Assembly: GCA_902770835.1 (NCBI GenBank) | Contig: CACXUM010000016.1 | Span: forward strand, 1-53,825 | Direction: 5' to 3' | From: an uncultured Bacteroidia bacterium | GTDB taxonomy: Bacteria > Bacteroidota > Bacteroidia > Bacteroidales > F082 | Length of the DNA: 53,825 nt | Shown here: in pieces, positions 18,531-25,222 of the stretch | How positions within the stretch are numbered: position 1 is the stretch's first letter | Layout: every line of letters starts with the position of its first letter | The notes under the pieces: generated by a model | What the model saw: only the letters and a program-made list of their open reading frames with translations | Databases searched by the model: none | Told to the model about the DNA's origin: nothing | Program-made: the position numbers and the translations under genes

Positions 18531-19319
18531 ATCCCGTGTTGCGCAAAACACCGACAGGTCTTTCAACGCCTCCCGTGTTTCGCCCTCGGGGAAAGATTCC
18601 AACAATTTTAGCGTTTCTTGCTGATATACAGGTAATAATTCCGTTGCCATTTTGACATTTTCAGGACTGTCGGCATCAAGGATGTCGTCACGCATTTGGA
18701 ACAACTGGCCGAAATGCAGCCCGAAGTCAGAAATCCGTTGGATTTGTTCCTCCGCCGCCCCGACCGACATGGCCCCGATGACGCAACACGAGCGCATCAA
18801 CAAAGCAGTTTTGCGGGTGATGATTTCAAGATAATCGTTCAATCCCGACAATTGCATCAATTCCCCTTCGCTCATGGCAGCAGTGGTGCGAAGCATTTCA
18901 TTCAGGATGTCGGTATCGTTGGCAATGAGCAACATGGCCTTTGCCAAAAGATAATCACCAGCAAGGACGGCCGAAAGGTTGTCGAATTGGGCTTTCACCG
19001 AGGCATGACCACGGCGTTGGTCGTCGTTGTCCACCACGTCGTCATGGATTAACGTGGCGGAATGAATCATTTCCACGAAAGTGGCCGCACGCAGGGTTTG
19101 TTCATTAATCTCGCCGAAAAGTTTCGCTGAAAACAAAACCAAAATCGGGCGCAGGCGTTTGCCCCGCGAGTCCAAAACATAGCGCATGATGGAGTTCATC
19201 GGCTCGGTTTCGGCTTTCAGAGTCTGCCCGAAAAAGGCCTCGAATTGCTGCAATTCGTCGGCGATGGGGGATATGATTTGATCTAAGGTTTTCACGGCTA
19301 TAATAGTATTCTTTATCAC
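18525..19319 (-). CDS. Polyprenyl (isoprenoid) diphosphate synthase
   Basis: 264 residues. The first aspartate-rich motif is DDVVD (residues 93-97) in LIHDDVVDNDDQRRG, and the second is QMRDDILD. GKRLRPIL binds isopentenyl diphosphate. Such enzymes build the prenyl chain of menaquinone or related lipids from FPP and IPP. The protein ends about 55 residues after the second motif, so it is shorter than the usual ~320, and the classic downstream GNDxxEGKxTLP block is absent. The ATG at 19319 overlaps the upstream gene's TGA (4-nt overlap), so it is coupled to it. Confidence 0.85.
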   Translation of the reverse strand: MIKNTIIAVKTLDQIISPIADELQQFEAFFGQTLKAETEPMNSIMRYVLDSRGKRLRPILVLFSAKLFGEINEQTLRAATFVEMIHSATLIHDDVVDNDDQRRGHASVKAQFDNLSAVLAGDYLLAKAMLLIANDTDILNEMLRTTAAMSEGELMQLSGLNDYLEIITRKTALLMRSCCVIGAMSVGAAEEQIQRISDFGLHFGQLFQMRDDILDADSPENVKMATELLPVYQQETLKLLESFPEGETREALKDLSVFCATRDL

Positions 19320-20071
19320 CCTTTATTCTCCTTCATCAGGAATTCCTTTATCTTTTCCTTGCTCGGCAACTGAAGTTCGTAGTAGTTGGAATCTATTTGG
19401 CGCTGTAGTTCTCGGTAACTCCACGGACCACGCATAGCTTCAATAGCATAAAACGCACGTTTCAAAGGATTATTAATGTGAAGTAGCAATGTCAGATGCG
19501 AAAATGACATTCTATCAAAAACCATTTGTGGAACAGGCATTACTTCGCCGTCTTCGGTTTGCATGGCAAAACCATCGGATGAAATCACGGCAGTTCCTGC
19601 TGGCTCATTAAAAAGGCTAATCAGCGATTGGCTTTTCGAAGAACCTTTGCTATTTCGTAAATCCAAAAGGTCAGACAGTGTCTGACTTTTTTCAAAAGAT
19701 TGACAATCAGTTAATAACAAAAGGTCAGACAGTGTCTGACTTTTTTCAAATTTTTGTTTTAGATATCGCACTATAGGATAACCCACCTCTGGAAATAATA
19801 AATAAAAAGAACGGTAGTTTTTAAGGTTTGTCAGACTAAAACTTTTATCATCAAGTCGTTTCGCCAAACGTTTCAACAATTTGTCGCCATACTTTGCCCT
19901 GTCGTTGCCGTGTTGTTCGTATTCCACAATATAAAAGCCTGTCAGCCAAGCTCGTGCCGTCACATTCCGATTGATGACAAGTCGGGCATCCTCTTGTAAA
20001 GCACTGCTCGTTGACTGAATCTTTCCAACGAGTGACTCAAAGTCTCCCCTGTTTTTATCAAATTCGTTCAT
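19316..20071 (-). CDS. DUF1016 N-terminal (YhcG-like) protein lacking nuclease domain
   Basis: 251 residues. The DUF1016_N domain is visible: ARAWLTGFYIVEYEQHGNDR, YGDKLLKRLAKRL, LTNLKNYRSFYLLFP, and after an insert SFSHLTLLLHINNPLKRAFY and WSYRELQRQIDSNYYE. The C-terminal PD-(D/E)XK nuclease found in full YhcG proteins (as at 48736) is missing; the gene stops soon after the N domain. Between the two halves lie three 18-residue repeats with core KSQTLSDLL, encoded by 54-bp units bearing a palindrome. It overlaps the polyprenyl synthase start by 4 nt. Function unknown; it may be a DNA- or partner-binding remnant of a defence gene. Confidence 0.75.
   Translation of the reverse strand: MNEFDKNRGDFESLVGKIQSTSSALQEDARLVINRNVTARAWLTGFYIVEYEQHGNDRAKYGDKLLKRLAKRLDDKSFSLTNLKNYRSFYLLFPEVGYPIVRYLKQKFEKSQTLSDLLLLTDCQSFEKSQTLSDLLDLRNSKGSSKSQSLISLFNEPAGTAVISSDGFAMQTEDGEVMPVPQMVFDRMSFSHLTLLLHINNPLKRAFYAIEAMRGPWSYRELQRQIDSNYYELQLPSKEKIKEFLMKENKG
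19618..19750. repeat. 54-bp tandem repeats with GTCAGACA palindrome in DUF1016 gene
   Basis: Two identical 32-bp blocks (19665-19696, 19719-19750) are spaced exactly 54 bp apart, each containing the palindrome GTCAGACAGTGTCTGAC (19670-19686, 19724-19740). A third, diverged unit at the same phase (~19618-19645) encodes SSKSQSLISLF. At protein level the period is 18 residues. Confidence 0.8.
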
Positions 20072-20104
20072 TTTGTCTCTCGTTTATACTGTGTTTTGCG
20101 GGTG

Positions 20105-20112
20105 CAAAGGTA
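20105..20112 (-). promoter_or_regulatory. -7 box for DUF1016/polyprenyl synthase operon
   Basis: Minus-strand TACCTTTG, 33 bp upstream of the ATG at 20071. Confidence 0.55.
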
Positions 20113-20160
20113 CTTAAAAATCTACAATCTCTCCGACAGACAATGTCAATATTGACTCGT

Positions 20161-20208
20161 TAGGTTGCACTTCCGAAAGCGGAAACATGAACCTGCCTAG
20201 GGGTGCAG
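20161..20208. other. Possible structured RNA or hairpin cluster
   Basis: In the ~295-bp gap between two minus-strand genes (20072-20367) this is the only ordered feature beyond the promoter. TTCCG-AAAG-CGGAA (20171-20184) is a tight hairpin. TGCAC (20166-20170) can pair with GTGCA (20203-20207), or AGGTT (20162-20166) with AACCT (20190-20194). No promoter or T-run was found beside it, so its expression is unproven. The remainder of the gap to 20367 shows nothing recognisable. Confidence 0.2.
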
Positions 20209-20367
20209 AAGTTCTTCTTTGGTCATAGGCTTATATGGTTTTGTTTGGTGCAAATAACACATTGTTGCTTGTCTTATTATCATTATTCCCTTACAACTTT
20301 CTTTTTCCAATTCCCACACCGTCCATTATCTCACTTTTCATCCCACACCTATGTATATATGGTACAA

Positions 20368-22704
20368 TCATTCTGTAGACTGCAAACTTTCTAGAATTAA
20401 ATGAAGTTCATCTACTTGGCTACGAGTCAAAAGTTTTGGTTTTGTTGATGTCCATGAATTACGATATGAAATCACGTCATTTAGCCATTTTAATTTATCT
20501 TTTCGCGATCTGAATGGCTCATTATCTGACAATCGAATTGAAAATTCAGTTTCAAAAGTTACGTAAGTATTATCATCTTCTTTAGTCAATATCCAGTTCT
20601 TTTCTATGATTTCTTTATAGTCCGAAGCCTGTAGGTAGTCCGGCCAATTATTTTCGTCAAAATCAGAATCATCTGGAAAATCAGAAGACATTCTTTGTAG
20701 GCATTTCGCCTTGATTTCGAACACGGTCTTCTCCCATTTATCACCATAAAAATCCTGAAGTTTATTGAGTACTCTGTCGTGGAGAATCTGTTCTATCTGT
20801 TTACCATAATTCTGACCTTCTTGCTGCAAATTCTCGTCCTGAGATTCTTTCCATTCTTTAAGACCATCAGGCTGGTATTCTGGTTGTTTTTCATTGATAG
20901 AATTTTCAAACATATGCAACCAAGTGGTATCTGCACCTTGACCCTTTACAACAAACAACATACTTCGATGTTCTGCGGGGAGGTTTGTAAGATAGTTTAT
21001 CAAGGTGTCAAAATATGGGGACATTGCCTGAATTTGTTGTTCTGTTGTAGATTTCTGACTTAATAGCCCCTTATGAATCAAATGTCTATTTAATGAACCT
21101 ATTATCACAATGAATGCATATGTACCCCTATTATCCTCAAAAAAACTCTTAAAGGTGTCCTCATCAAGTTTTTCGTACATATATGCATAACAGTCTCGAA
21201 GTAAATTCGAAATACGCTTTTTAGCATCATTCATTGCTTTGTTATGGTCTAAATTGTTGCAATCGTACAAGCACACATCAGTATCTTGAGTGTATGTCTT
21301 ATTGGATGCTTTCGGTAAAAGACTCGATTTGCTCAGCGCAGTTATGAATGGCTTGAGAGTAAGTTTCGCACTATCTTCGCCTACTGATATTTTAGTATAA
21401 AGTACACTATTTGAATCACGTGTCAAAACTTTAATAATGGATGAGCGTAAAGCGAGCATTCTCGAATCAGCACGTTCAGAATCCCAATTAATATCTTCAG
21501 CAAGATCTAATCTCAAACTCGGATTAACAGACTTTTGATTCTCATTAATATCCATGAAAATTTTCAACTGCTCTTGAGAATCAATATTATCGAATGCCAC
21601 AACGGGAATTGTATTGGTGTCTTTATATTTTGAACCTGCATAACCATATACACGATGCTGGCCATCAATTATAAAAGCAACTCCATAGGCGTTAGGGATA
21701 GAAAGAATTCCGAATCGAGAATTTGTGTCACCGACATTAGATGATGGTTCAAATTGTACTTTTAATTTCTTATTTGAATTTGAAGAATCGAAATTGACAA
21801 TAATAGAATTGGGGAAATACCCACCGTCGTCAATAAACTTTGTTATGCCTTTGAGTCGAGACGGAACCAATAATCGTTGGTAAGTGGGAGCCATCGAGTC
21901 ATTAACTTTTGTACGATGGAGCACAAATCCAATTTTGAGTAGTTTACTTGGCTCAATTGAAAGCATATAATAATCATGTCCTCCCATAGTACCTTTAAGT
22001 GCAGGAACTTTAATCCTTTCATTATTAATCAGTTCATTTTTGAACATCAGCCCATAGAACTGATATTTTACAGAGGTTTTATATGCTTTTATCAAACTGT
22101 TTATGTAGTTGAAACTATTTTCGTTAAAATGATAGACTTTGTTACCATTCAGGCGTTGAAGATCTTCGCTTGATTCTGAGAATTTATAATTTCGGGTAGC
22201 AAAAACAAATTTCACTTTCTTTTCACCATAAATCTGACGAAGGGCTTTTGTCACCCCTTCTTTGTATTGGCACAGATTATCAATATCCTTCTTGAAATTG
22301 GCATTTCTTGGCTTGTCAGAAGCCTTACATTCTACTACAAAGATTGCTTCTTCATCAACTGCGACCACATCTAGTTGATGATGATCACCGGGTCCTGGTC
22401 CCCATTGTACTTCCAGATGCTCATCGTAATTCAATGTCTTGAATCCTAGGTTATAAAACAAGCACCACATATCATCTTCAAATTTTCTGCCTGAGTCTTT
22501 CTCTCGCTGTATTTTTACTTTTCGTTTCAGTGTAGCGATTACTTCCCACCCATCACTTTCGCAATCATCGACTTCATTTAGGTCTATGGTCCGTAAATCG
22601 TATGGGGTGTTTTTAGACTTGAACTTCCTATTGAGCATGGCTGTATCTTCCGAGATCATATGCTCTTTGATCATCTGTACCTGTGATTCTGTTAGAAATG
22701 CCAT
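20368..22704 (-). CDS. PD-(D/E)XK nuclease-like / DGQHR (DndB-like) fusion protein
   Basis: 778 residues. The N-terminal ~210 look like a restriction-endonuclease fold: FEDDMW (Glu76), HQLDVVAV (Asp112) and FVVECKAS (Glu125-x-Lys127). The middle carries DGQHR (residues 347-351, IIDGQHRVYGY) and FMDINENQKSVNPSL (384-398), hallmarks of DGQHR/DndB proteins. DndB acts with phosphorothioation genes as a regulator; other DGQHR proteins are uncharacterised. The C-terminal ~350 residues are not recognised. The gene starts 1 bp after the wHTH gene's stop and is third in a tight operon behind an adenine methylase. It is markedly AT-rich compared with its flanks. Likely role: restriction or regulation in a DNA-modification system (inference). 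Confidence 0.7.
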   Translation of the reverse strand: MAFLTESQVQMIKEHMISEDTAMLNRKFKSKNTPYDLRTIDLNEVDDCESDGWEVIATLKRKVKIQREKDSGRKFEDDMWCLFYNLGFKTLNYDEHLEVQWGPGPGDHHQLDVVAVDEEAIFVVECKASDKPRNANFKKDIDNLCQYKEGVTKALRQIYGEKKVKFVFATRNYKFSESSEDLQRLNGNKVYHFNENSFNYINSLIKAYKTSVKYQFYGLMFKNELINNERIKVPALKGTMGGHDYYMLSIEPSKLLKIGFVLHRTKVNDSMAPTYQRLLVPSRLKGITKFIDDGGYFPNSIIVNFDSSNSNKKLKVQFEPSSNVGDTNSRFGILSIPNAYGVAFIIDGQHRVYGYAGSKYKDTNTIPVVAFDNIDSQEQLKIFMDINENQKSVNPSLRLDLAEDINWDSERADSRMLALRSSIIKVLTRDSNSVLYTKISVGEDSAKLTLKPFITALSKSSLLPKASNKTYTQDTDVCLYDCNNLDHNKAMNDAKKRISNLLRDCYAYMYEKLDEDTFKSFFEDNRGTYAFIVIIGSLNRHLIHKGLLSQKSTTEQQIQAMSPYFDTLINYLTNLPAEHRSMLFVVKGQGADTTWLHMFENSINEKQPEYQPDGLKEWKESQDENLQQEGQNYGKQIEQILHDRVLNKLQDFYGDKWEKTVFEIKAKCLQRMSSDFPDDSDFDENNWPDYLQASDYKEIIEKNWILTKEDDNTYVTFETEFSIRLSDNEPFRSRKDKLKWLNDVISYRNSWTSTKPKLLTRSQVDELHLILESLQSTE

Positions 22705-22705
22705 A

Positions 22706-23158
22706 TTATTTGTGTTTTAAATTCATGTAATTGATGATGCGTTTACACCAAAGCACAATATTGCGAGCTCTGCGTTCAATTGTTGAACTTGAGATAATTT
22801 CTGGATGATAATATGAAACTAATTCTTGGGCAAAAGTATCAAGATCCGAATCTGGTAATACGAATGCTCTTGCGAAAACTTGCCCCATTAATTCATCTGT
22901 AATAATCCTTTCGTAAACTCTTTCCGTAATATTTTCTGAACTATTCTTGAAGATATCTTCACATATCCTAGACGGTTTTCTGTCTTCTATTACAAGATCC
23001 AAATAAACACAAGCATCCGTATAATATTTTGCCTGTCGCTCAGCAAAACCTAAATAATTAGCTATATCATTATAGCCACAGCCTGGATGATAGTGAATAT
23101 AAGTCATCACATCTATCACTTTATCCAAATCGTTTGCTTGTGGTAGTATTTTCTTCAT
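22706..23158 (-). CDS. Winged-helix DNA-binding-like protein of modification cassette
   Basis: 150 residues, no named family recognised with certainty. The N-terminal half reads as a winged helix: DKVIDVMTYIHYHPGCGYND, then IANYLGFAERQAKYYTDACV and YLDLVIEDRKPSRI. The C-terminal half is helical (ITERVYERIITDELMGQVFA...IERRARNIVLWCKRIINY). Similar wHTH modules accompany some type II restriction enzymes. It lies 2 bp after the methylase and 1 bp before the nuclease/DGQHR gene, so it is almost certainly co-translated. It may be a target-recognition subunit or a regulator of the cassette. Confidence 0.6.
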   Translation of the reverse strand: MKKILPQANDLDKVIDVMTYIHYHPGCGYNDIANYLGFAERQAKYYTDACVYLDLVIEDRKPSRICEDIFKNSSENITERVYERIITDELMGQVFARAFVLPDSDLDTFAQELVSYYHPEIISSSTIERRARNIVLWCKRIINYMNLKHK

Positions 23159-23160
23159 TA

Positions 23161-24102
23161 TTATAGAATTAGTGGCAATGGTTTATTGGGATTATCATAG
23201 TTTGTAATAAGAATTTCTATTTGTTTCTCTCGTTTTTCGGCATATGCATTAATGAAACGTGGTGCCAAAACTTTGTTGAAGAAATAACCATTATAAAGGT
23301 TCTCAAAATACGAAGTTCCGTCTTCGTTAATGCTATCAGAATTACTTAACATCAACTTACAATTTCTGGCCGTTAATTTGTCACAGAATCTTTTCAGTTC
23401 TACTTGTTCACCATCGCCAAAATCACTTTTTGAATATTGCTTGAAATTTCCTGAACCTAATAGAGGTCTATAAGGGGGATCAAAATATATAAAATTGTAG
23501 CCAATGCTTAATTGCTGAAATACACTCTTGTAGTCCCCACAACAGATTTCAACATTTGTTAGAGCCTCATGATCTGCCATAATGACATCTATATTACAGA
23601 TTTTTGGGGTTTTATAGCACCCAAATGGTACATTAAAGCCACCATTTGCATTCTCGCGATACAGACCATTAAAACAAGTTTGATTCAGGAAAATTAAGTG
23701 AGCGGCTCTATGATCGTCATCGAGATCCATATTATTGTATTCGTTACGAACTTCGTAGAAATAAGTTTTTTTTGCCACCTCGCTCAATTGGTAGTACTTT
23801 TGTTCAAAAAATGTCAATAGTTCAATTAGTTTCTGTGGATTTTCCTTGACAAGCAGGTAGCACCTGATGAGATCTTTATTGATATCATTTATCACAACAC
23901 GACCGATATTCTTGTGTGTTTTGAGCATGTGAAATAGCATAGCCCCACCTCCTACAAAAGGCTCAATATAAGTTACATTTTTTTGCAAATCGAAATCATC
24001 AGGTAACTGTGACTCAAGTATATTCAACAAATTACCCTTGCCTCCAGCCCATTTTACAAACGGTTTGGCTATAACAGTTTTTTTATGGTCGTTTTTAGTC
24101 AT
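23161..24102 (-). CDS. D12-class adenine-specific DNA methyltransferase (Dam-like)
   Basis: 313 residues. N6-adenine methylase of the alpha (D12/Dam) class: the AdoMet-binding motif KWAGGKGNLL (residues 17-26), EPFVGGGAMLFH (47-58) and the catalytic DPPY (208-211, FIYFDPPYRPL). The block TCFNGLYRENANGGFNVPFG is typical of Dam/DpnM-type enzymes that recognise GATC, so GATC is the best guess. It is first in a three-gene operon (23161-24102, 22706-23158, 20368-22704) with 1-2 bp gaps, under a TAATTTTG box at 24142-24149. Confidence 0.9.
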   Translation of the reverse strand: MTKNDHKKTVIAKPFVKWAGGKGNLLNILESQLPDDFDLQKNVTYIEPFVGGGAMLFHMLKTHKNIGRVVINDINKDLIRCYLLVKENPQKLIELLTFFEQKYYQLSEVAKKTYFYEVRNEYNNMDLDDDHRAAHLIFLNQTCFNGLYRENANGGFNVPFGCYKTPKICNIDVIMADHEALTNVEICCGDYKSVFQQLSIGYNFIYFDPPYRPLLGSGNFKQYSKSDFGDGEQVELKRFCDKLTARNCKLMLSNSDSINEDGTSYFENLYNGYFFNKVLAPRFINAYAEKREKQIEILITNYDNPNKPLPLIL

Positions 24103-24141
24103 TGTTTATTTCATCTACCTATCATATAAACTATGCGCCTG

Positions 24142-24149
24142 CAAAATTA
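24142..24149 (-). promoter_or_regulatory. -7 box for methylase cassette
   Basis: Minus-strand TAATTTTG, 39 bp upstream of the methylase ATG. The region just upstream carries 33-bp tandem repeats. Confidence 0.5.
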
Positions 24150-24235
24150 CACCTTTTCCCCAACAAATCCCAATTCATTCCTTTCCAACCACCGCCTAAG
24201 CAAAAACGCACAAAAAAGCGTTATCGACCCTTTTT

Positions 24236-24325
24236 CACATTTTATGAACCATTTTCGCGGCAAATTTACACAATTTATGAACCATTTTCACCCCAATTTC
24301 ACACATTTCATGAAAATCATCGGAA
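24236..24325. repeat. Three degenerate 33-bp tandem repeats upstream of methylase cassette
   Basis: The core TTTATGAACCATTTTC recurs at 24242 and 24275, with a third, weaker TTTCATGAAAATC at 24307; the spacing is exactly 33 bp (three helical turns). The stretch 24109-24423 otherwise holds no convincing gene: a plus-strand frame (24133-24408) merely reads through the repeats as FMNHF-like units and has no promoter box. Confidence 0.6.
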
Positions 24326-24423
24326 AACCGTTCACAAAGAATGTCGGCAATTCTATCCAAAATGAGTTTTGCATGACAAATCCAGAAGAATTTGCAGATG
24401 ATTTGTGATGCAGTTTTATGCAT

Positions 24424-24840
24424 TCATTCAAGGGATAACTGCATAAAATCAGTCGGAGATAACACAATGATTCCGCTTTGCGGAAAATGCCGCTCATTTC
24501 GTGTTACAATATGACTACATCCAGCAGCCAATGCTGCATAGTATTGTAACATGTCTTCAAAATCGGGAGCGACAGCATAAAGAGCTTCATGGAGTTGTGT
24601 GGAATCCATGGTGGCGACATTGATATGATGTTCTAATATCTTCAATGCTTCCAAAGCGTTGGCATATCCTAACATCTTGCGAGCCACAAACATACACGTG
24701 GAGAACGAAAGTGGAGTGGAATATAACGCAATCTCGCCTTTGAACCCCCTATTCAGTACATGTGCCGAATCATGTACAAACGGTTCGCGATGGAGCAACA
24801 CATCAAGCAACACATTGGTATCGAGAAAAACACGTGTCAT
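24424..24840 (-). CDS. PIN-domain toxin (VapC-like)
   Basis: 138 residues with a PIN RNase fold. Acidic active-site positions are visible: Asp7 in VFLDTNVLLDVLL, a mid-protein Glu/Asp helix (DFEDMLQYYAALAAGC) and the closing VTRNERHFP strand-loop. VapC toxins cleave tRNA or rRNA when freed from their antitoxin. The ATG at 24840 overlaps the antitoxin TGA by 4 nt, the classic arrangement with the antitoxin first. Confidence 0.85.
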   Translation of the reverse strand: MTRVFLDTNVLLDVLLHREPFVHDSAHVLNRGFKGEIALYSTPLSFSTCMFVARKMLGYANALEALKILEHHINVATMDSTQLHEALYAVAPDFEDMLQYYAALAAGCSHIVTRNERHFPQSGIIVLSPTDFMQLSLE

Positions 24841-25115
24841 AAGGCGTATTTTTCTTTCATGTGGTCGATTCGTGCATACTCGCCATTGAGACCCACCTCT
24901 GAATCGTCAAGCAACGGCATTGCAAGTATGGCCTCCAAATCTGGTGCATAGTGCTCTGTGGTGTCTTTTGAATCACGTTGCGTAGTGGTGGCAAGGCGAA
25001 TCAAAATCATCTCCATCTGACGCTGCATCCATTTTGAGATGTCGGTATCGGCTCCGATGGCGGGACGTGCCTGTTCAATGAGAGTGTCGCTTAGTGTAAT
25101 ACTATAGGTGCACAT
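24837..25115 (-). CDS. Antitoxin partner of PIN toxin
   Basis: About 92 residues, counted from MCTYSITLSDTLIEQ at 25115; an upstream ATG at 25139 would add 8 residues but overlaps the promoter box at 25137. The N-terminal half resembles a ribbon-helix-helix DNA-binding domain (YSITLSDTLIEQARPAIG...ISKWMQRQMEMI). The C-terminal half is acidic and would wrap the toxin (DLEAILAMPLLDDSEVG). It probably autorepresses the operon. Confidence 0.75.
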   Translation of the reverse strand: MCTYSITLSDTLIEQARPAIGADTDISKWMQRQMEMILIRLATTTQRDSKDTTEHYAPDLEAILAMPLLDDSEVGLNGEYARIDHMKEKYAL

Positions 25116-25136
25116 GATGTATAACTGTTTCGTGTG

Positions 25137-25144
25137 CAAAAATA
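25137..25144 (-). promoter_or_regulatory. -7 box for toxin-antitoxin operon
   Basis: Minus-strand TATTTTTG, 21 bp upstream of the antitoxin ATG at 25115. Confidence 0.55.
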
Positions 25145-25222
25145 CGCTTTTTTTTTCGATAAGGCTCCCAAAAATGCACGATATTTGCAGAGCCTACGTT
25201 ATTCTTCAAAAACGCATCAACC

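What the first reader, a model, noticed from the sequence alone, without database searches (positions are those of the whole stretch)
20368..24149. Compact AT-rich cassette: Dam-like methylase, winged-helix protein, and PD-(D/E)XK-DGQHR fusion
Three minus-strand genes with 1-2 bp gaps share one promoter. Seen: a D12 adenine methylase with DPPY, a 150-residue wHTH protein, and a 778-residue protein joining a restriction-type D112...E125xK127 core to a DGQHR motif and an INENQKSVNPSL block. Known: DGQHR/DndB proteins usually go with phosphorothioation (Dnd) genes, yet no dndACDE is present. Inference: a self-contained modification-restriction or modification-sensing defence system in which a GATC-type methylase replaces Dnd. 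The lower GC content than the flanks suggests horizontal gain. I know no described system with exactly this trio.
Basis: partly seen in the sequence, partly recalled or inferred. Interest (0 to 1): 0.78.

Follow-up and report, generated by a model that had tools for sequence, protein, structure and literature searches.

The report
Dam methylase paired with nuclease-NTPase fusion
A bacterial genome carries a recently acquired gene cluster that looks like a little-known kind of restriction-modification defence, in which a Dam-type DNA-marking enzyme is paired with a large protein joining a DNA-cutting domain to a nucleotide-binding domain; the pair recurs across several bacterial phyla, and this copy lacks two genes that its closest known relative has.

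Summary
The three genes are real and intact. The constant unit is two of them: a Dam/DpnM-type D12 adenine methylase and a ~780-residue fusion. The best 80 of 383 genome relatives of the fusion were examined; in 75 of the 77 that could be tested a D12 methylase is adjacent. The predicted structure supports a PD-(D/E)XK nuclease fold (residues 71-206), then a ParB/Srx fold carrying DGQHR (about 235-391). The C-terminal tail has a HEPN-like motif in 45 of 79 family rows, not here. The winged-helix protein is optional (11 of 80 loci); it is a stand-alone DUF7226, elsewhere the C-terminal domain of a type II restriction enzyme beside Dam methylases. The trio is not the full operon of its clade: 22 of 23 clade relatives have an SF2 helicase after the fusion, and five of them, the nearest included, a DpnA-like second methylase. 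Both are absent here; at most a 12-base trace of the second methylase remains. The cassette is an insertion between polyprenyl synthetase and alpha-2-macroglobulin genes. Most likely it is an m6A (GATC) restriction-modification system whose effector resembles the modification-sensing nucleases SspE and DndI. Specificity, restriction and sensing are inferred, not shown.

The parts
24140..24149 (-). TAATTTTGCA, a match to TANNTTTGCA, the Bacteroidetes -7 promoter element (recalled); the only one for the three genes
   Evidence: 15 in the window, 2.5 expected from shuffles, none inside the operon
23161..24102 (-). Dam/DpnM-type D12 N6-adenine methylase, 313 aa, DPPY at residues 208-211, FNGLYR...NVPFG recognition segment
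   Evidence: PF02086 1.1e-54; closest solved structure DpnM 2dpm 1.1e-47; DPPY and the Arg of NG-x-x-R in 73 of 73 aligned members
22706..23158 (-). stand-alone DUF7226 winged-helix protein, 150 aa; optional third gene
   Evidence: DUF7226 7.9e-14; in 11 of 80 related loci, between methylase and fusion; elsewhere the C-terminal domain of ~430-aa type II restriction enzymes beside Dam methylases; model pLDDT 92.5
20368..22704 (-). 778-aa effector: PD-(D/E)XK + DGQHR (ParB/Srx fold) + helical C-terminus
22087..22494 (-). PD-(D/E)XK nuclease domain, residues 71-206 (D112, E125, K127)
21532..22002 (-). ParB/Srx-fold domain, residues 235-391, with P273-x-Y275-Q276-R277, D347GQHR351 and F383xxxN387
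20371..20937 (-). helical C-terminal region, residues 590-778; HEPN-like RX4H in 45 of 79 family rows but not here (R748, no His)
20360..20371 (-). possible 12-base trace (ATGATTGTACCA, MIVP) of the start of a DpnA-like second methylase gene, 10 of 12 bases as in L015; homology to L015 stops at 20359
19316..20071 (-). internally deleted DUF1016_N (PDC-S02) gene, 251 aa; the nearest same-genus genome examined has a longer open copy at the same place
24424..25139 (-). PIN_3 toxin gene and upstream 100-aa putative antitoxin gene, part of the same inserted segment
   Evidence: PIN_3 1e-16; no family for the 100-aa protein
20125..25174 (.). 5,050-bp segment absent at this site in the nearest same-genus genome examined (G412)
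   Evidence: L140 2238 pairs with window 25175 and L140 2273 with window 20124

Best explanation
It is a mobile restriction-modification system based on N6-methyladenine. The Dam/DpnM-type methylase marks host DNA, most likely at GATC. The 778-residue fusion is the restriction effector: its PD-(D/E)XK domain cuts DNA, and its DGQHR (ParB/Srx-fold) domain binds and probably hydrolyses a nucleotide and ties cutting to the methylation state, as the DGQQR domains of SspE and DndI do with phosphorothioate. In part of this clade a separate winged-helix protein, the free form of a restriction-enzyme domain, probably helps the effector find its sites, and an SF2 helicase and sometimes a DpnA-like methylase complete the operon. 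This copy arrived recently, keeps methylase, winged-helix protein and effector intact, and lacks the helicase and second methylase. Shown: gene content, adjacency, conserved catalytic residues, absence of the helicase, empty site; folds by prediction. Inferred: GATC specificity, cleavage, NTP use, sensing, anti-phage role, that the missing genes were lost rather than never present, and whether this copy works.
For: D12 methylase adjacent in 75 of 77 testable loci: 74 upstream on the same strand, one convergent (L041), three of 80 at contig edges, two without (L045, L073). The two full-length homologues besides the window (L002, L003) also have it, as do 4 of 5 long virus-contig homologues. No D12 gene lies in the eight fetched loci with short DGQHR proteins (L004-L006, with 1.5 kb flanks only, and L010-L014). 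Catalytic residues of methylase (73 of 73) and nuclease are conserved; folds. Non-synonymous divergence is far below synonymous against the nearest relative (pN 0.09-0.20, pS 0.72-0.87). GATC link: closest structure is DpnM; DpnA-like methylases in L015, L024, L025, L026, L032, L073 and L092; DpnII restriction genes in L073 and L092; DUF7226 sits in restriction enzymes beside Dam genes. No DpnII-family enzyme found in this genome, in G412 or in four clade genomes, so the fusion is the obvious nuclease partner. Mechanism template: passages of PMC11662687 and PMC13251355.
Against: No activity is shown. In L092 and L073 a DpnII enzyme coexists with the fusion, so the fusion need not be the sole cognate nuclease. 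Nuclease residues depart in 8 of 79 rows. The genus avoids GATC also without a cassette at this site (o/e 0.21 in G412), so avoidance is no evidence for it. The clade's helicase is missing here, so this copy may be impaired; one other clade member, L020, also lacks it. DndB, a DGQHR protein with a studied function, is a transcription regulator (passages of PMC4507180).
Confidence: 0.6

Rival explanations
1. Decaying remnant. The cassette lost its helicase and second methylase, and the remaining methylase now acts as an orphan Dam with the effector idle.
For: 22 of 23 clade relatives have the helicase and this copy does not; the second methylase of L015 is reduced to at most a 12-base trace; the genome shows only partial hits of 25-39% identity to either gene; the neighbouring DUF1016 gene is internally deleted.
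Against: The three genes are open and keep their catalytic residues; the HEPN-like His is missing from all 24 rows of the clade. Loci outside the clade occur without this helicase, and so does L020. The genome is a draft (85.8% complete), though the missing genes would belong inside the contig.
Confidence: 0.25
2. Abortive-infection effector. The fusion senses infection or loss of methylation and damages host nucleic acid or nucleotides (HEPN-like RNase, ParB/Srx NTPase), rather than acting as a classic restriction enzyme.
For: RX4H in 45 of 79 C-termini, sub-threshold HEPN_Apea hits in L076 and L073. PMC10853773 passages suggest DndB might degrade nucleotides.
Against: The HEPN-like His is absent in all 24 rows of the window's clade, in L038 and L039 and in all eight rows of a Bacillota clade; the PD-(D/E)XK residues are far better conserved than RX4H.
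Confidence: 0.17
3. Regulator. The DGQHR protein is a DndB-like regulator that tunes the methylase or its promoter, with the nuclease domain as a DNA-binding remnant.
For: DndB of Salmonella binds its own promoter and limits phosphorothioation (PMC4507180 passages). In three radical-SAM-linked fusions the catalytic lysine is replaced.
Against: In the 79-row set, nearly all methylase-linked, D, E and K are conserved in 78, 75 and 73 rows, and the gene is far from the DndB equivalog cut-off (38.6 against 328 bits).
Confidence: 0.1
4. Methyl-directed (type IV-like) nuclease that cuts m6A-marked DNA, paired with a methylase that marks invaders.
Against: A methylase in the same operon would mark the host too (general reasoning, not tested).
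Confidence: 0.05

Closest known systems
DpnII/MboI-type GATC restriction-modification (DpnM, DpnA, R.DpnII)
   Same: DpnM-type methylase (closest structure 2dpm); DpnA-like second methylase in seven related loci; two related loci carry a DpnII-family gene beside the fusion
   Different: No DpnII-family nuclease found in this genome; the nuclease candidate is a PD-(D/E)XK-DGQHR fusion
SspE and DndI (phosphorothioate-sensing DGQQR NTPase-nucleases), and GmrSD
   Same: ParB/Srx-fold domain with DGQ[QH]R, the P-x-Y-Q pattern and FxxxN motif, joined to a nuclease
   Different: Nuclease is PD-(D/E)XK at the N-terminus instead of HNH at the C-terminus; partner is an adenine methylase, not phosphorothioation genes
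DndB / DpdB (DGQHR proteins of the Dnd and Dpd modification systems)
   Same: Homologous DGQHR domain (PF14072 4.6e-17; DpdB 8.4e-16; DndB 6.4e-10)
   Different: Scores far below equivalog cut-offs (57.8 of 300; 38.6 of 328), extra nuclease and helical parts, no dndC found in the genome
DUF6996-DUF6997-DUF7226 type II restriction enzymes (PADLOC PDLC03513) beside Dam methylases
   Same: Their C-terminal DUF7226 domain is the window's 150-residue protein as a separate gene; same Dam-type partner
   Different: Here the DUF7226 domain is separate and the nuclease is a different fusion

Membership tests
D12 (Dam/DpnM) adenine methylase | PF02086 over cut-off, DPPY and FxGxG-type SAM motifs, NG-x-x-R and NVP recognition residues | tested here: met
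D12 (Dam/DpnM) adenine methylase | methylates adenine in GATC | not testable with these tools
   recognition residues match DpnM/Dam in alignment; that those residues read GATC is recalled
Type II restriction-modification system | methylase gene adjacent to a nuclease gene | tested here: met
   75 of 77 testable loci; PD-(D/E)XK fold by prediction
Type II restriction-modification system | nuclease cuts the site that the methylase protects | not testable with these tools
   needs biochemistry
PD-(D/E)XK nuclease | alpha-beta core with D and (E/Q)xK in place | tested here: met
SspE/DndI/GmrSD (DUF262-HNH) | ParB/Srx domain with DGQ[QH]R and P-x-Y-Q | tested here: met
   motifs from passages
SspE/DndI/GmrSD (DUF262-HNH) | C-terminal HNH (DUF1524) nuclease | tested here: not met
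   no DUF1524 match up to E = 1; nuclease fold is PD-(D/E)XK
Dnd system (DndB) | DndB equivalog score and dndC/D/E genes | tested here: not met
   38.6 of 328 bits; no dndC found in the draft genome; dndD and dndE not searched
Dpd system (DpdB) | DpdB equivalog score | tested here: not met
   57.8 of 300 bits; other dpd genes not searched
DpnII restriction enzyme | PF04556 protein | tested here: not met
   none found in the draft genome; present in relatives L073 and L092
HEPN ribonuclease | RX4-6H motif in the C-terminal helical domain | tested here: not met
   absent in the window, RX4-5H after the conserved Trp present in 45 of 79 rows
FokI-type DNA-recognition module (for the 150-aa protein) | whole-length structural match to FokI recognition domains | tested here: inconclusive
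Any PADLOC 2.0.0 defence system | specific model for the fusion | tested here: not met
   five fusions scanned (window, L051, L091, L102, L103): only DpdB or DndB domain-level hits, plus one weak PDC-M34B hit (18.6 bits, L091)

The most novel reading that the evidence does not exclude
The family is an m6A counterpart of SspE/DndI: a ParB/Srx-fold NTPase reads N6-methyl-GATC through the same P-x-Y-Q pocket that reads phosphorothioate, and NTP hydrolysis switches or releases an attached PD-(D/E)XK nuclease. It would be a class of nucleotide-dependent restriction built on an ordinary Dam methylase. A sister branch would couple the same fusion to radical-SAM enzymes and so perhaps to an undescribed DNA mark: in the three such loci seen, the pocket proline and the catalytic lysine are both changed.
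Probability: 0.33. Interest if true: 0.82.

Novelty: new variant of a known kind. Interest (0 to 1): 0.6.

Why it matters
If right, the modification-sensing logic worked out for phosphorothioate systems also runs on a very common bacterial DNA mark, m6A, with a different nuclease. The fusion occurs in records titled Bacteroidota, Pseudomonadota, Bacillota, Campylobacterota and Cloacimonadota (many are metagenome bins), five members had no specific PADLOC model, and the idea could be tested with two genes. It also gives DUF7226 a likely role, and it suggests DGQHR domains are parts of restriction systems rather than only Dnd regulators.

Tried and rejected
GATC avoidance as proof of GATC restriction. 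The window is strongly depleted of GATC (o/e 0.14 outside 19300-25200), but the nearest relative without the cassette at this site is nearly as depleted (G412, 0.21; one search shows no Dam-like D12 gene there, only a 22-bit partial hit) and the cassette itself is not (0.86). I use this only as evidence of recent arrival.

A link between loss of the HEPN-like His and gain of the helicase: only 3 independent pairs on the tree, no test possible.

A viral-contig search with the winged-helix protein alone found nothing. phmmer of the fusion against PDB sequences gave one chance-level hit and a profile search none. Foldseek on the whole fusion gave no match at E <= 0.001 (best 1.3e-3, Cdn1); the fold statement rests on VIA-align rows. 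Foldseek for the winged-helix model also gave none at E <= 0.001, and its top 50 rows hold no FokI chain. The C-terminal region was barely covered by the fold rows, so HEPN is a motif-level guess.

The 12-base trace of the second methylase is short, so it may be chance; the second methylase is in only 5 of 23 clade relatives (L015, L024, L025, L026, L032), and after the helicase in four of them, so the window may never have had it.

Literature: searches for DGQHR (6 papers), DUF7226 (0), DndB with methyltransferase/defense system/domain (17), DpnA+DpnM+DpnII (2), DndB with adenine methylase and restriction (3), SspE+DGQQR+restriction (5) and a five-term search (0) gave listings in which I saw no described Dam-DGQHR nuclease system. 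I read passages, not whole papers, of eight. Subscription papers and REBASE are not covered.

Rows dropped: of the 80 loci, six fusions shorter than 740 aa (L048, L054, L074, L075, L079, L080: split, cut or at contig edges) were left out of the 79-row alignment, which also holds the window, L002, L003, L007 and L008. Methylases under 240 aa were left out of the 73-row alignment. The scan found 383 relatives but returned only 80, so all counts concern the best 80. Of 28 genomes with a polyprenyl synthetase match, six sites were fetched and compared.


Full report
What is there. Three abutting minus-strand genes lie at 20368-24102 behind one TANNTTTGCA box at 24140-24149. They encode a D12 methylase (PF02086 1.1e-54; TIGR00571 5e-77; nearest solved structure DpnM 2dpm, 1.1e-47), a 150-residue DUF7226 protein (7.9e-14) and a 778-residue DGQHR protein (TIGR03187 5.4e-35). 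Cassette GC is 0.34-0.37 against about 0.5 around it.

The constant unit is methylase plus fusion. A scan of one genome for each of 84,980 species gave 383 relatives of the fusion, of which the best 80 were returned. A D12 methylase lies upstream on the same strand in 74 (in L080 beside the first piece of an interrupted fusion, in L092 with a DpnII gene between); L041 has it convergent; L050, L054 and L079 start at or inside the fusion at a contig edge; L045 and L073 have none. So 75 of 77 testable loci have it. Of 395 same-phylum genomes, 6 match at E <= 1e-10: the window's own, two with full-length fusions (L002, L003), both with the methylase, and three with short DGQHR proteins. Of five long homologues on virus contigs, four have it, two of them downstream. 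The eight fetched loci with only a short DGQHR protein (three with 1.5 kb flanks) have no D12 gene. Protein distances of methylase and fusion correlate (r = 0.51, 69 rows; 0 of 2000 permutations as high). All 73 aligned methylases keep DPPY and the NG-x-x-R and NVP residues that align with Dam and DpnM.

The operon is shorter here. The window falls in a clade of 24 fusions (SH-aLRT 100). Of the other 23, 22 have an SF2 helicase (ResIII/Helicase_C for L015's; phmmer 447 bits or more) directly after the fusion, or after the second methylase in L015; L020 lacks it. The nearest relative L015 (84% identical fusion) reads methylase, DUF7226, fusion, DpnA-like methylase, helicase. Window DNA matches L015 from 24069 to 20359 (73.6%) and then diverges; the window has the same four first codons of the second methylase (10 of 12 bases), perhaps a trace of it. 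That methylase is in 5 of the 23. The genome shows only partial hits of 25-39% identity to either gene; it is a draft at 85.8% completeness. Over all 80 loci, DpnA-like methylases occur in eight (seven above 280 bits) and DpnII enzymes in L092 and L073. No DpnII-family enzyme was found in this genome, in G412 or in four clade genomes.

How it got here. In five same-genus genomes (G413, G398, G415, G414, G406) the polyprenyl synthetase gene lies next to the alpha-2-macroglobulin gene. In the sixth and nearest one examined (G412) a DUF1016 gene lies between, longer than the window's, and window 20125-25174 is absent. The window's DUF1016 copy is internally deleted. The cassette has 13 GATC sites in 3.7 kb against 25 in 47.9 kb of the window outside 19300-25200. 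The genus avoids GATC with or without the cassette at this site, so this points to a recent arrival but does not prove the specificity. Non-synonymous change against L015 is far below synonymous, which suggests that the genes were under selection before arrival.

Mechanism. DndI cuts unmarked DNA and is released from marked DNA by ATP hydrolysis; SspE is switched on by the mark (passages). The fusion has the same reader-NTPase domain type joined to a different nuclease, beside a methylase that would supply the mark. I therefore favour m6A restriction-modification with a nucleotide-dependent effector (0.6). Rivals: a decaying remnant (0.25), an abortive effector (0.17), a regulator (0.10), a methyl-directed nuclease (0.05); the numbers overlap, since the remnant reading of this copy can be true together with the best explanation of the family.

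Against. No activity is shown. Two loci pair the fusion with a DpnII enzyme, one of them without a D12 gene. HEPN is a motif-level guess and fails in the window. Only the best 80 of 383 relatives were seen. Literature absence rests in an open-access library without REBASE.

Novelty. Each part belongs to a known kind. The combination recurs in records of five phyla, had no specific PADLOC model in the five members scanned and was not seen in the papers searched: a new variant of a known kind.

Noticed in passing
L007 (8863-17313), L008 (5191-15579), L105 (5986-9511): In three loci the same fusion has no D12 methylase but lies next to or near a radical-SAM gene (so annotated in L007 and L008; Pfam hits below cut-off in all three); L007 and L008 also have a second DGQHR-type gene, ATP-binding proteins and a PIN-like protein.
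   Followed up: partly
L012 1-4303, L010 6953-8823, L011 5016-6995, L014 6986-8915: Short DGQHR proteins come paired with a ~300-residue downstream protein carrying an RN-x-x-NY motif; in Acinetobacter pTR3_4 the pair directly follows a methylase and a NotI-family enzyme.
   Followed up: partly
window 19316-20071: DUF1016_N (PDC-S02) gene of 251 aa that has lost an internal stretch present in the same-genus copy in L140; it sits in the same variable site.
   Followed up: partly
window 24424-25139: PIN_3 toxin and a 100-aa putative antitoxin lie in the same segment that is absent from G412.
   Followed up: no
own genome G000:C1:89308-90048 (L191): A second D12 methylase with a 465-residue partner of unknown kind after it, perhaps another restriction-modification system.
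   Followed up: no
window and 200 kb of other own contigs: Strong depletion of CTAG (o/e 0.04 in the other contigs), GATC (0.18) and AGCT (0.39); AGCT is much less depleted in G413, G415, G406 and G398 (0.78-0.91), hinting at an AGCT-specific system in this lineage.
   Followed up: no
L017 8409-9239, L019 12025-12852, L069 5727-6569: Related proteins follow or flank the operon in three clade loci; the one of L017, the only one scanned, matches GIY-YIG/DUF4357 and PADLOC PDC-S14.
   Followed up: no
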